The notes below the pieces were generated by a model. It saw only the letters and a program-made list of their open reading frames with translations, did no database searches and was not told the DNA's origin. From the NCBI GenBank assembly GCA_902786465.1, contig CADACQ010000002.1:99502-163501 (forward strand): a DNA stretch of 64,000 nucleotides, in the 5' to 3' direction. Positions 12,190 to 14,666 of this stretch are shown one piece after another. Made by a program: the position numbers and the translations under genes. The stretch is from an uncultured Eubacteriales bacterium (GTDB taxonomy: Bacteria; Bacillota; Clostridia; Christensenellales; CAG-138). Position 1 is the stretch's first letter. The number at the start of each line of letters is the position of its first letter.

Positions 12190-13695
12190 ATGGCATACTA
12201 TTTCAGCGAACCGTCCCACACCTTCTCCGAGTATCTTCTCGTTCCCGGCTATTCTTCCTCCGCCTGCACCCCGCAGAACGTGTCCCTGGTGACCCCGATC
12301 TGCAAGTTCCGGGTGGGCGAGACCCCTGCCCTGTCCATGAACATCCCCCTGGTGTCCGCCGTGATGCAGTCCGTGTCCGGTGAGAAGCTGGCGGCGGCCC
12401 TGGCCCGGGAAGGCGGCGTGTCCTTCATCTTCGTGTCCCAGCCTATCGAGAGCCAGGCGGCCATGGTCCGGGCGGTGAAGAAGTGCAAGTCCGGCTTCGT
12501 CCGCAGCGATTCCAATGTGACCCCCGATTCCACCCTTGGGGACGTGATCGCCCTGAAGGAGCGCACGGGCCACTCCACCATTGCCGTCACCGACGACGGC
12601 AGCCCCGACGGGAAGCTGGTAGGCATGGTCACCAGCCGGGATTACCGGGTGAGCCGCATGGGCCTCGACACCCCCGTCAGGGAGTTCATGACCCCCTTCT
12701 CCTCCCTGGTCTACGCCTACGAGGGCGTGAGCCTGAAGGAGGCCAACGACATCATCTGGGAGCACAAGCTCAACACCCTCCCCATCATTACCAAGGACGG
12801 CAACATGTCCGCCTTCGTGTTCCGCAAGGACTACGACGCCCACAAGGACAACCCCCTGGAGCTGCTGGACGACCATAAGCGGTACGTGGTAGGCGCGGGC
12901 GTCAACACCCGGGACTACGAGCAGCGGATCCCCGCCCTCATTGAAGCCGGGGCGGACGTGCTCTGCATCGACTCCTCCGAAGGCTTCACCGAGTGGCAGC
13001 AGCGGACCATCGACTTCGTCCGCCGGAACTACGGCGACTCCGTGAAGATCGGCGCGGGCAACGTGGTGGACGGGGACGGGTTCCGCTTCCTGGCCGAGGC
13101 GGGCGCCGATTTCGTGAAGGTGGGCATCGGCGGCGGCAGCATCTGCATCACCAGAGAGACCAAGGGCATCGGCCGGGGCCAGGCCACCGCCGTGCAGGAC
13201 GTGGCGGCCGCCCGGGACGAGTATCTGAAAAAGACCGGCATCTACGTGCCCGTGTGCGCCGACGGCGGCATCGTCCAGGATTATCACGTGACGCTGGCTC
13301 TCGCCATGGGCGCGGACTTCTGCATGCTGGGCCGGTACTTCGCCCGGTTCGACGAGAGCCCCACCAACAAGGTGCTCATCAACGGCAGCTACATGAAGGA
13401 ATACTGGGGCGAGGGCAGCGCCCGGGCCCGGAACTGGCAGCGGTACGACAACGGCGGCGACAAGAAGCTGACCTTCGAAGAGGGCGTAGACTCCTACGTG
13501 CCCTACGCCGGTCCCCTCCACAACAACGTGGAGACTACCCTCCACAAGGTCCGGTCCACCATGTGCAACTGCGGCGCCACCACCATCGCCGAGCTTCGCG
13601 AAAAGGCTCGCCTGACGCTGGTCTCCCCCGCCTCCATGGTGGAAGGCGGCGCCCACGACGTGCTCCAGAAGGACAGCCGGTACTTCGCGAACTAA
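12190..13695 (+). CDS. guaB: IMP dehydrogenase, Tritrichomonas-foetus-like type
   Basis: The 501-residue enzyme oxidises IMP to XMP, the committed step of GMP synthesis. An N-terminal barrel half is followed by a CBS pair (about residues 100-215) and the catalytic half. The active-site loop [12 protein letters not shown] places the nucleophile at Cys319. Asp261, Asp358, Arg382 and the flap Arg418-Tyr419 fall at exactly the positions I recall for the IMP dehydrogenase of the protist Tritrichomonas foetus. The sequence resembles that protein far more than ordinary bacterial GuaB, whose loop is usually GSICTTR. It is monocistronic with its own promoter and precedes a tRNA gene. Function is secure; the subgroup call rests on memory of the protist sequence. 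Confidence 0.94.
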
Positions 13696-13769: not shown

Positions 13770-13845
13770 GGGGCATTAGCACAGTTGGTAGCGCGCAACG
13801 TTCGCAATGTTGAGGTCAGGGGTTCGAATCCCCTATGCTCCACCA
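13770..13845 (+). tRNA. tRNA-Ala (anticodon CGC)
   Basis: The 76 bases fold into a full cloverleaf: acceptor GGGGCAT paired to ATGCTCC, a D arm, anticodon stem CAACG/TGTTG with loop TTCGCAA (anticodon CGC, reading GCG), and a T arm AGGGG-TTCGAAT-CCCCT. The acceptor contains the G3-U70 wobble pair that identifies alanine tRNA. CCA is encoded. It has its own promoter and terminator. Confidence 0.95.
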
Positions 13846-13882
13846 ATCAAAAAGGACACCCTGTTGGGTGTCCTTTTTGATT
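13845..13882 (+). terminator. Rho-independent terminator of tRNA-Ala
   Basis: A perfect 17-bp inverted repeat (13845-13861 with 13866-13882) with a TGTT loop contains a T5 run in its right arm. It starts at the last base of the CCA end. Confidence 0.92.
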
Positions 13883-13892
13883 AAATGAAATA

Positions 13893-13998
13893 AGGGGGAT
13901 TCGAACGGGTGCGGTAGTGAATGAAGCCCCAGTGGGGCTTCAGAGCCGCACCCCGACCAAGCCCGCAGGCGCGAATTCGAATCCCCTATGCTCCACCA
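13893..13998. repeat. Palindromic element ending in a duplicated tRNA 3' end
   Basis: The left boundary GGGGATTCGAA (13895-13905) is the exact inverse of TTCGAATCCCC (13976-13986). The right boundary, 13976-13998, is an exact 23-base copy of the T-loop-to-CCA end of the neighbouring tRNA-Ala (13823-13845). Inside, GGGTGCGG (13907-13914) pairs with CCGCACCC (13946-13953), enclosing a 9-bp hairpin TGAAGCCCC-AGT-GGGGCTTCA (13922-13942). It encodes no protein. The arrangement looks like an attL/attR duplication around a very small non-autonomous element, or a tRNA-end-mimicking palindromic repeat. The rest of the tRNA is not duplicated, so this is not a second tRNA gene. Confidence 0.75.
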
Positions 13999-14079
13999 GC
14001 CATCAATACAGAATCACAAATGCATTTGAGAATCGCTCGGTATTTCGTTATTTTTTCAACATTTCATCCTTTGACTCTA

Positions 14080-14108: not shown

Positions 14109-14135
14109 ATTAAAGAATAGGGGGTAATGACGAGT

Positions 14136-14666
14136 ATGCCGAATTTTCTGGAGGGACTTCCCAAGGAAAAGGTACAGCTGCTGTACATCCTGGGCGCCGC
14201 CAAAGCGGAGCTGACGGAGCAGCAGTTCTATCAGTGCGCCTATGAATCCACGGGCATGAACTGGTTCTCCTTCCACGACGTGGTGGGCGACCTGGAGGAA
14301 AACGGGGACATCGTCTCCGCGCGCCGCCCCTTCGGTGCCTGCTTCTCCTTGACGGACCAGGGCAGGATGACCCTCGGCATGTTCGAAAAAGGCCTCACCT
14401 ACTCCCTCCGGACCAGCATCGACGAGTATCTCAAGCGCTACGCGCCCCAGTTCCGGCAGGAACGGGAGCTGGTCTCCTCCGAGGAGCCCTTGCCCGGCGG
14501 CGGCATGTTGGTGCGGCTCAAAGCCTTGGAGGGGGAGCGTACGCTCCTGGAGATCGACCTTACGGTAGCCTCCTTAGAGGAATCCCTGGCCCTTCGCAAG
14601 CACTGGCAGCAGCGCAGCGCGCGGCTGTTCGACATCATATACGACACGCTGACGGAAGAAGAATAG
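14136..14666 (+). CDS. DUF4364 family protein
   Basis: This small cytosolic protein of unknown function matches the clostridial DUF4364 family. The start MPNFLEGLPKEKVQLLYIL is followed by a winged-helix-like N-terminal half (about residues 10-75) and a mixed alpha/beta C-terminal half. Two starts are possible. The ATG at 14127 is only 2 bases from the AGGGGG site, while the ATG at 14136 is 11 bases away and gives the usual MPN start, so I chose the latter (176 residues). It is followed 8 bases later by pcrA and may be a regulator or partner of that operon, which is inference from position. Confidence 0.82.
   Translation: MPNFLEGLPKEKVQLLYILGAAKAELTEQQFYQCAYESTGMNWFSFHDVVGDLEENGDIVSARRPFGACFSLTDQGRMTLGMFEKGLTYSLRTSIDEYLKRYAPQFRQERELVSSEEPLPGGGMLVRLKALEGERTLLEIDLTVASLEESLALRKHWQQRSARLFDIIYDTLTEEE

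What the first reader, a model, noticed from the sequence alone, without database searches (positions are those of the whole stretch)
13823..13998. tRNA-Ala 3' end duplicated around a highly palindromic 130-bp insert
A 23-base exact copy of the tRNA T-loop-to-CCA end (13823-13845) recurs at 13976-13998. Between the copies are the tRNA terminator and a structured element whose left border (13895-13905) is the inverse of the T-arm sequence and whose core folds into nested stems (13907-13914 with 13946-13953, and 13922-13930 with 13934-13942). This is the geometry of attL/attR left by site-specific insertion into a tRNA 3' end, but the cargo codes for nothing. It may be a minimal non-autonomous element moved by an integrase in trans, or a class of tRNA-tail-mimicking palindromic repeats.
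Basis: partly seen in the sequence, partly recalled or inferred. Interest (0 to 1): 0.7.

Follow-up and report, generated by a model that had tools for sequence, protein, structure and literature searches.

The report
tRNA-tail hairpin cassettes after tRNA genes
In a group of uncultured clostridia, many tRNA genes are followed by short hairpin-forming DNA blocks that end in a copy of that same tRNA's own tail; they resemble a little-understood repeat known beside tRNA genes of E. coli.

Summary
In detail: the 23-nt tRNA-Ala tail recurs exactly at 13976-13998 around a 130-bp palindromic insert. It is not a one-off. The core recurs in 12 of 12 genomes of the window's genus, 6-21 hits each. In two of them, 11 of 16 and 18 of 23 unit-terminal tRNAs examined carry such a unit, as a rule with the tail of their own tRNA. 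The layout is tail (T1), terminator, inverted T-arm (T1'), hairpin core, tail again. T1-bounded units are gained, lost and reordered. Mispairs in the stems are strand-symmetric (GT 70, AC 57), unlike tRNA stems (112, 13), so pairing looks kept as DNA rather than RNA. Hairpins are shared more within a tRNA locus than within a genome, which argues against recent transposition. RAYT is found in 2 of 12 genus genomes. The closest known kind is E. coli RtT at tyrTV and lys, where I found the same own-tail rule, though Rfam's RtT model has no match in three genomes tested. The mechanism is unproven; local recombination plus template switching fits best.

The parts
13770..13845 (+). tRNA-Ala(CGC) gene
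   Evidence: ARAGORN; Rfam RF00005 62.5 bits
13823..13845 (+). T1: T-loop to CCA end of the tRNA, first direct copy
   Evidence: exact 23-nt repeat
13846..13881 (+). tRNA terminator-like hairpin with paired A and T tracts; first part of the cassette
   Evidence: sequence; other terminator hairpins stand here at the orthologous locus of most related species
13895..13906 (-). T1': reverse complement of T-loop plus 3' T-stem of the same tRNA
13907..13914 (+). outer stem, 5' arm (pairs with 13946-13953)
   Evidence: covariation
13915..13922 (+). conserved internal loop TAGTGAAT, mark of the core family
   Evidence: of 100 parsed genus units 74 have TAGTGAAT, 25 GAGTGAAT or AAGTGAAT, 1 TAGTGACT
13923..13941 (+). 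inner hairpin GAAGCCCC-AGT-GGGGCTTC
13942..13945 (+). AGAG, other side of the internal loop
13946..13953 (+). outer stem, 3' arm
13954..13975 (+). P3 segment CGACCAAGCCCGCAGGCGCGAA with a small stem
13976..13998 (+). T1(2): second direct copy of the tRNA tail, closes the cassette
12190..13695 (+). upstream neighbour, IMP dehydrogenase (not part of the element)
   Evidence: PF00478 E 9.5e-111
14127..14666 (+). downstream neighbour, DUF4364 protein, used to find orthologous loci (not part of the element)
   Evidence: PF14277 E 1.1e-30

Best explanation
The feature is one unit of a locus-resident, tail-bounded repeat class behind tRNA and tmRNA genes. Each unit is: terminator, inverted T-arm (T1'), REP-like palindromic core, direct copy of that gene's own tail (T1). 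Shown: the layout, the own-tail rule, unit-wise differences between species (number, filling, order), strand-symmetric pairing. Inferred: units are duplicated, deleted and exchanged locally by recombination or replication slippage between the T1 direct repeats, and stems and tail copies stay good because replication template switching between inverted copies (T1, T1', T1) rewrites one arm from another, with the tRNA itself as the copy held fixed by selection. Integrative islands use the same tail as attachment site and may add exchange. Any benefit to the host (topological or termination boundary, spare attachment site) is open.
For: Own tail: in 35 of 35 genes with both copies the own tail beats every clearly different tail (about 76) for the direct copy, and in 26 of 35 for the inverse copy; foreign tails pass both tests in 7 of 3411 trials. 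Orthologous Ala loci: identical tRNA in 9 of 9, a unit in 8 of 8 readable, mostly with different terminator and hairpins. tmRNA arrays A-B in G001, B-A-insert-B-like in G006, before a homologous flank; five units in tandem at Ser(GCT) in G008. GT 70 and AC 57 in stems, tRNA control 112 and 13, Fisher p 6e-10. 52 distinct inner hairpins in 100 units, 91 fully paired with GT allowed. Identical inner hairpins: same tRNA in different genomes 10.8% of 259 pairs, different tRNA in the same genome 1.0% of 293, both different 1.9% of 3082. tRNA-Trp T-arm and T1(2) changed alike in G004. E. coli tyrTV and lys carry own-tail units; so do tRNA-Ala(GGC) of G058 and tmRNA of G012. Template switching as maker and keeper of stems: PMC8794818 (abstract).
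Against: T1' and T1(2) deviate from the tRNA nearly independently (11 shared deviations, 7 expected, and 3 of the 11 are the G003 Arg case), whereas arm-to-arm copying should give more shared ones. G003 tRNA-Arg has a new tail while its T1(2) copies keep the old one, which looks more like tail replacement by an integrating element. Template switching does not explain why the same core family sits at so many tRNAs, nor the conserved TAGTGAAT/AGAG loop. The sequences are related, so pair counts are not independent.
Confidence: 0.42

Rival explanations
1. Minimal non-autonomous integrative cassettes (CIME- or MITE-like): T1 and T1(2) are attL and attR, and a tyrosine recombinase in trans inserts and excises T1-bounded units.
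For: The direct repeat runs from the T-loop to CCA; T1-bounded units stand in tandem next to the tRNA; one G006 tmRNA array has a 352-nt insert with a 47-aa ORF between units; two Met units lie about 60 kb (G000) and 35 kb (G006) from their tRNA with a PF00589 gene between, as if islands had entered the tail; G003 Arg tail replacement.
Against: No sign of recent spread between tRNAs of a genome. Tail-specific att sites would need many recombinases, but PF00589 has 2 hits over the cut-off plus 1 fragment in G000 (70.8% complete) and 7 hits at 4 places in G006; other recombinase families and other genomes were not searched. T1' is not a normal att part (established knowledge).
Confidence: 0.25
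2. Host-kept DNA boundary elements, REP/BIME-like, placed after highly transcribed tRNA units to absorb supercoils, block read-through or act as decoy attachment sites.
For: Present at most unit ends in the two genomes examined (18 of 23, 11 of 16); stems stay paired while their sequences turn over.
Against: No tail copy at 13 of 18 unit ends of G012, 9 of 9 of G025 and 10 of 10 of G058 that were sampled, although G058 has units at tRNA-Ala(GGC), one of them between two tRNA genes; islands seem still to enter the tRNA's own tail; no functional evidence.
Confidence: 0.17
3. RtT-like functional RNA processed from tRNA transcripts.
For: E. coli RtT has a like layout and is described as an RNA product of tRNA operons (PMC4986893, passages); strong fold; strong covariation.
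Against: Here the unit lies behind the tRNA terminator; the GT:AC ratio is 1.2 against 8.6 in tRNA stems; the RtT model has no match in G000, G006 or G012.
Confidence: 0.11
4. Chance or assembly artefact.
For: The genomes are draft assemblies, some incomplete, with runs of N at some repeats.
Against: Core hits in 12 of 12 genus genomes; shuffles and foreign tails rarely reproduce it.
Confidence: 0.01

Closest known systems
RtT RNA / E. coli tyrTV-tpr and lys tail repeats (Rfam RF00391)
   Same: A hairpin block behind a tRNA that ends in a copy of that tRNA's own tail, at Tyr (19/20) and Lys (18/20); tandem units; a terminator inside the unit behind lysQ; at tyrTV also an inverse tail copy that pairs with the next tail.
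   Different: Other core sequence; the RtT model has no match in three genomes. The inverse copy is clear only at tyrTV (12/15; 11/15 in the tyrT-tyrV spacer); at lys it is 9-10/15, no better than background. I looked at two E. coli loci only.
REP / GTAG-tagged palindromic repeats with RAYT
   Same: Short intergenic palindrome with GTAG before a hairpin and compensated stems (PMC3733652, passages).
   Different: GTAG lies inside a larger stem; Y1 transposase found in only 2 of 12 genus genomes; tied to tRNA tails in this genus.
tRNA-flanked integrative elements, CIMEs and islands
   Same: Direct repeat of the tRNA 3' end on both sides.
   Different: About 130 bp without an evident gene in the window, an inverted T-arm inside, own-tail versions at many different tRNAs.
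Integron attC cassettes
   Same: Tandem units bounded by a shared site, each with a folded palindrome.
   Different: No attC boxes seen by eye; integron integrase not searched for as such. The comparison is from recall.

Membership tests
RtT (RF00391) | match to the Rfam covariance model | tested here: not met
   0 of 3 genomes (G000, G006, G012) at E<=1; of 14 controls only E. coli rings. No RtT in the window stretch at E<=10
RtT (RF00391) | unit sits behind a tRNA and ends in that tRNA's tail (feature derived here, not from Rfam) | tested here: met
   in E. coli Tyr and Lys
RtT (RF00391) | stable RNA released from the tRNA transcript | not testable with these tools
   no RNA data
REP with RAYT | Y1 transposase (PF01797) in the genomes that hold the repeat | tested here: not met
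   2 of 12 genus genomes at E<=0.001; several of the 12 are incomplete
REP with RAYT | GTAG directly at the foot of the hairpin | tested here: inconclusive
   GTAG present but followed by TGAAT and enclosed in an outer stem
tRNA-integrated CIME/MITE | direct repeat of the tRNA 3' end at both borders | tested here: met
tRNA-integrated CIME/MITE | empty site in close relatives | tested here: inconclusive
   8 of 8 readable genus Ala loci carry a unit; G012, another genus, has no tail copy at 13 of 18 unit ends, Ala(CGC) among them
tRNA-integrated CIME/MITE | recombinase acting in trans | not tested
   PF00589 located in two genomes only; activity needs an experiment
Integron attC | IntI-type integrase and R/L boxes | not tested
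   only judged by eye on the core sequences

The most novel reading that the evidence does not exclude
A tRNA-based, integron-like system: the tRNA tail serves as the insertion site and a folded T1'-core-T1 hairpin as an attC-like recombination site, so that terminator-bearing cassettes (one array with a 47-aa ORF between units) are inserted, lost and reordered at tRNA and tmRNA 3' ends, with E. coli RtT as a distant case of the same device.
Probability: 0.12. Interest if true: 0.9.

Novelty: new variant of a known kind. Interest (0 to 1): 0.63.

Why it matters
tRNA 3' ends are common doors for islands and phages (established knowledge). A repeat class that copies each tRNA's own tail, at most tRNA unit ends of two genomes examined and with another core in E. 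coli, means that the odd tyrT repeats may be part of a wider phenomenon. It offers over 100 natural units (123) in which to test how tail copies arise (recombinase, template switching or selection) and whether they change where islands insert.

Tried and rejected
RAYT in trans: PF01797 in only 2 of 12 genus genomes. Rfam: at gathering scores only tRNA in 10 loci of the own genome and in 10 other loci. RNA-level structure as the main reading: covariation is strong, but GT and AC are nearly equal. Compensation inside T1'/T1(2): hardly above chance. Recent transposition inside genomes: not seen. My first core pattern had wrong spacing and gave four matches of no use. For the E. coli inverse copy, the 15-nt test is good (12/15; 12 of 5000 shuffles), but a 12-nt test on T-stem and acceptor alone gave 8/12, reached by 1476 of 5000. 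Literature: the listings of searches showed no title or abstract that describes tail-bounded hairpin units in clostridia; only open-licence papers are held and few were opened, so this is no proof of absence. That tyrT repeats are long known is partly recalled; what I saw is the passages of PMC4986893, the annotation and Rfam.

Rows dropped: searches gave 148 hits (106 and 42); 124 were entered by hand, 123 left after removing a duplicate. The 24 left out were second reads of the same place, partial hits and weak hits. One search parsed 100 of 123; the rest lacked the loop landmarks. One search used the 148 rows (134 distinct). One search compared 95 of 105 units with an upstream tRNA or tmRNA (10 weak). 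Unit ends: G006 23 of 23; G000 16 of 17 (one at a contig end); G012 20 of 28 fetched, 18 analysed; G025 10 of 21, 9 analysed; G058 10 of 27, 10 analysed. The model hits counted were typed in.

Mended on checking: G058 is not free of units. My ten sampled unit ends had none, but two stretches fetched show own-tail units at tRNA-Ala(GGC); the G006 insert is 352 nt, not 450; G000 has two integrase hits over the cut-off, not three.

Full report
Observation. All stated features are in the window at the stated places. The 23-nt tail 13823-13845 recurs exactly at 13976-13998; 13895-13905 is the exact inverse of the T-arm; both stems are perfect. Folding z-scores are -5.74 as RNA and -6.45 as DNA. Shuffles do not reproduce the direct copy (0 of 5000) and rarely the inverse copy (2 of 5000).

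Copies in the own genome. A DNA search with 13815-14010 found copies after tRNA-Ser(GGA), Ser(GCT), Ser(CGA), Leu(TAA), Trp, Arg(ACG) and Glu(CTC). A covariance model R1 built from ten copies finds 16 matches at E<=1 in the own genome, one of them the reverse strand of the window's own copy. It finds 6-21 matches at E<=0.01 in each of 12 of 12 genus genomes, and matches in 3 of 25 other genomes of the family (G012, G019, G035) and 2 of 24 others of the order (G046, G058).

Names. These records are titled uncultured Clostridiales bacteria. That RUG assemblies come from the rumen is recalled.

The own-tail rule. Of 146 distinct tRNA/tmRNA genes with at least 60 nt before the next tRNA, 75 have a direct tail copy of at least 13/15, 48 an inverse copy of at least 12/15, and 35 both. 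In those 35 the own tail is strictly better than every tail with 3 or more differences (about 76 alternatives) in 35 for the direct and 26 for the inverse copy. Foreign tails pass both tests in 7 of 3411 trials. This set is enriched for loci fetched because of the core, so fairer rates come from unit ends found through the tRNA model alone: in G006 16 of 23 pass either test and in G000 10 of 16; adding R1 matches gives 18 of 23 and 11 of 16. A few units, such as those at Cys and Ser(GCT) of G006, match the core but miss the tail thresholds. In G012, another genus of the family, 4 of 18 pass the direct test and one more the inverse test only, with other hairpin cores; in G025 0 of 9 and in G058 0 of 10 sampled unit ends pass.

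Outside the genus. R1 matches in G058 (another family) do lie behind tRNA-Ala(GGC) in two stretches, each with a 15/15 own-tail copy; in one of them the unit sits between tRNA-Ala and tRNA-Lys, so it is not always at a unit end. In G012 they lie behind tmRNA with its own tail, 15/15. G019, G035 and G046 matches were not examined further.

Exceptions. Unit ends without a unit are Gly(CCC), two Met and Leu(CAA) in both genomes, plus Arg(CCT) in G006 and Cys in G000. G000 Leu(CAA) is followed by a tyrosine integrase; G006 Leu(CAA) by an ORF that looks like a large serine recombinase (by eye). For one Met tRNA in each genome a unit with the Met tail lies 60,414 bases (G000) or 35,188 bases (G006) away on the same contig and strand, with a PF00589 gene in between. 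I read this as islands that integrated in the tRNA's own tail and pushed the unit away. That is inference from position.

Orthologous locus. The DUF4364 neighbour was found in 11 of 12 genus genomes. Nine of these stretches contain the tRNA-Ala, identical in all; one is cut just after the terminator. In the 8 others a unit follows directly, but the blocks differ; only G000 and G007 share the same whole block; five show a second unit or a remnant of one; one is partly N. So the place is fixed and the filling changes.

Units as the currency of change. In the tmRNA arrays G001 has units A-B and G006 has B-A, then a 352-nt insert with a 47-aa ORF, then a B-like unit, both before a homologous flank. 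G008 has five hairpin units in tandem behind Ser(GCT), with three different stem sets. Such rearrangements can come from recombination between the T1 repeats; they do not by themselves show a recombinase.

DNA or RNA. Over 134 distinct elements, stems hold 70 G-T and 57 A-C mispairs (outer and inner 26 and 17; P1 38 and 37). The acceptor and T stems of 153 tRNA genes from the same loci hold 112 and 13 (Fisher p = 6e-10), and 67 terminators of these tRNAs 16 and 3. An RNA under selection should keep G-U and lose A-C. Near-equality suggests that pairing is kept at the DNA level, on both strands. The weak point is that related sequences are counted.

Turnover. In 100 of 123 units that could be parsed there are 52 different inner hairpins and 31 outer stems; 91 inner hairpins are fully paired, G-T allowed. 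Two units at the same tRNA in different genomes share the inner hairpin in 10.8% of 259 pairs; at the same tRNA of one genome in 33% of 21; at different tRNAs of one genome in 1.0% of 293; with both different in 1.9% of 3082. So units belong to loci, with no sign of recent copying from tRNA to tRNA within a genome. Of the 123 units, 105 have a same-strand tRNA or tmRNA upstream in the fetched stretch; the other 18 have tRNA- or tmRNA-like tail sequence as judged by eye.

Tail copies. T1' copies the T-loop and the 3' T-stem and then decays; T1(2) starts near C56 and runs on into the acceptor. Their deviations from the tRNA are hardly more shared than expected (11 against 7). In G004 the Trp T-arm changed on both strands of its stem; T1(2) shows both tail changes and T1' one of them. 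In G003 the Arg(ACG) tail changed while the T1(2) copies kept the old sequence. The first favours local homogenisation, the second tail replacement; I cannot decide between them.

Wider occurrence. A strict pattern (T1, T1', T1 with fixed gap ranges) matches 7 of 396 genomes of the order: 5 of 5 genus members drawn, 1 of 29 other family members, 1 of 362 others; the reversed control has no match. The pattern is insensitive: it misses G012 and G058. So the core also exists as a dispersed palindrome.

Known relatives. E. coli K-12 tyrTV-tpr has three direct tail copies (19/20) 178 bp apart, each with an inverse copy (12/15; 12 of 5000 shuffles as good, but a shorter test on T-stem and acceptor alone is not significant); the first unit folds with inverse and direct copy paired. 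Rfam calls these RtT, four times with the tyrT-tyrV spacer. At the lys operon K-12 has Lys tail copies (18/20) in the five spacers examined, and isolate LP26-E1-261 has two tandem 156-bp units annotated RtT that include a terminator and end in the Lys tail, 18/20 against 13/20 for the Tyr tail; a clear inverse copy is lacking at lys (9-10/15). So RtT units too end in the tail of their own tRNA at both loci. The RtT model finds nothing in G000, G006 or G012. I therefore call the window's unit RtT-like in architecture, not RtT. [quoted passage not shown] coli, with an effect on the stringent response (PMC4986893, passages).

Mechanism. I rate local recombination plus template switching highest (0.42), then trans-acting integration (0.25), host-kept boundary DNA (0.17) and RNA (0.11). 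Shown: layout, own-tail rule, unit-wise differences, strand symmetry, locus lineages. Inferred: the process. Template switching as a source of perfect stems is from PMC8794818 (abstract).

Noticed in passing
G000:C3:30703-91353 (L287, L310, L217) and G006:C2:492688-528046 (L207, L272): tRNA-Met units displaced about 60 kb and 35 kb from their tRNA, with a phage-type integrase between: probable integrated islands that mark the tail as their attachment site.
   Followed up: partly
L203 (G006 tmRNA array): A 352-nt insert with a 47-aa ORF lies between two tail-bounded units, a possible gene-carrying cassette.
   Followed up: partly
L213 (G058:C1:1-1600): An own-tail unit sits between tRNA-Ala(GGC) and tRNA-Lys(CTT), inside a tRNA cluster rather than at its end.
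   Followed up: partly
L262, L273, L279, L283: A second core type (GAAGCCGCGTTAAGAAAA and similar) uses the same T1'/T1 frame.
   Followed up: partly
L074, L092, L127 and others: The same core occurs away from tRNAs inside a larger dispersed repeat; 53 of 127 public cores have a GCGAAGCG-type left arm.
   Followed up: partly
L426, L428, L429 (G046:C7:5584-5923): An array of alternating inverted tail-like copies around terminator-like hairpins in another family of the order.
   Followed up: no
L361, L388, L263, L309 (tRNA-Cys): At tRNA-Cys the core seems to sit inside the second tail copy, between T-stem and acceptor, rather than between T1' and T1.
   Followed up: no
L007/L218 and L008/L290 (G000): Two nearly identical Trp units on two contigs, one without a tail before it: duplication around an insert, or an assembly fault.
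   Followed up: partly
L430, L432 (E. coli lys operon): Own-tail hairpin units after tRNA-Lys genes, annotated as RtT in one isolate but without RtT annotation in K-12.
   Followed up: yes
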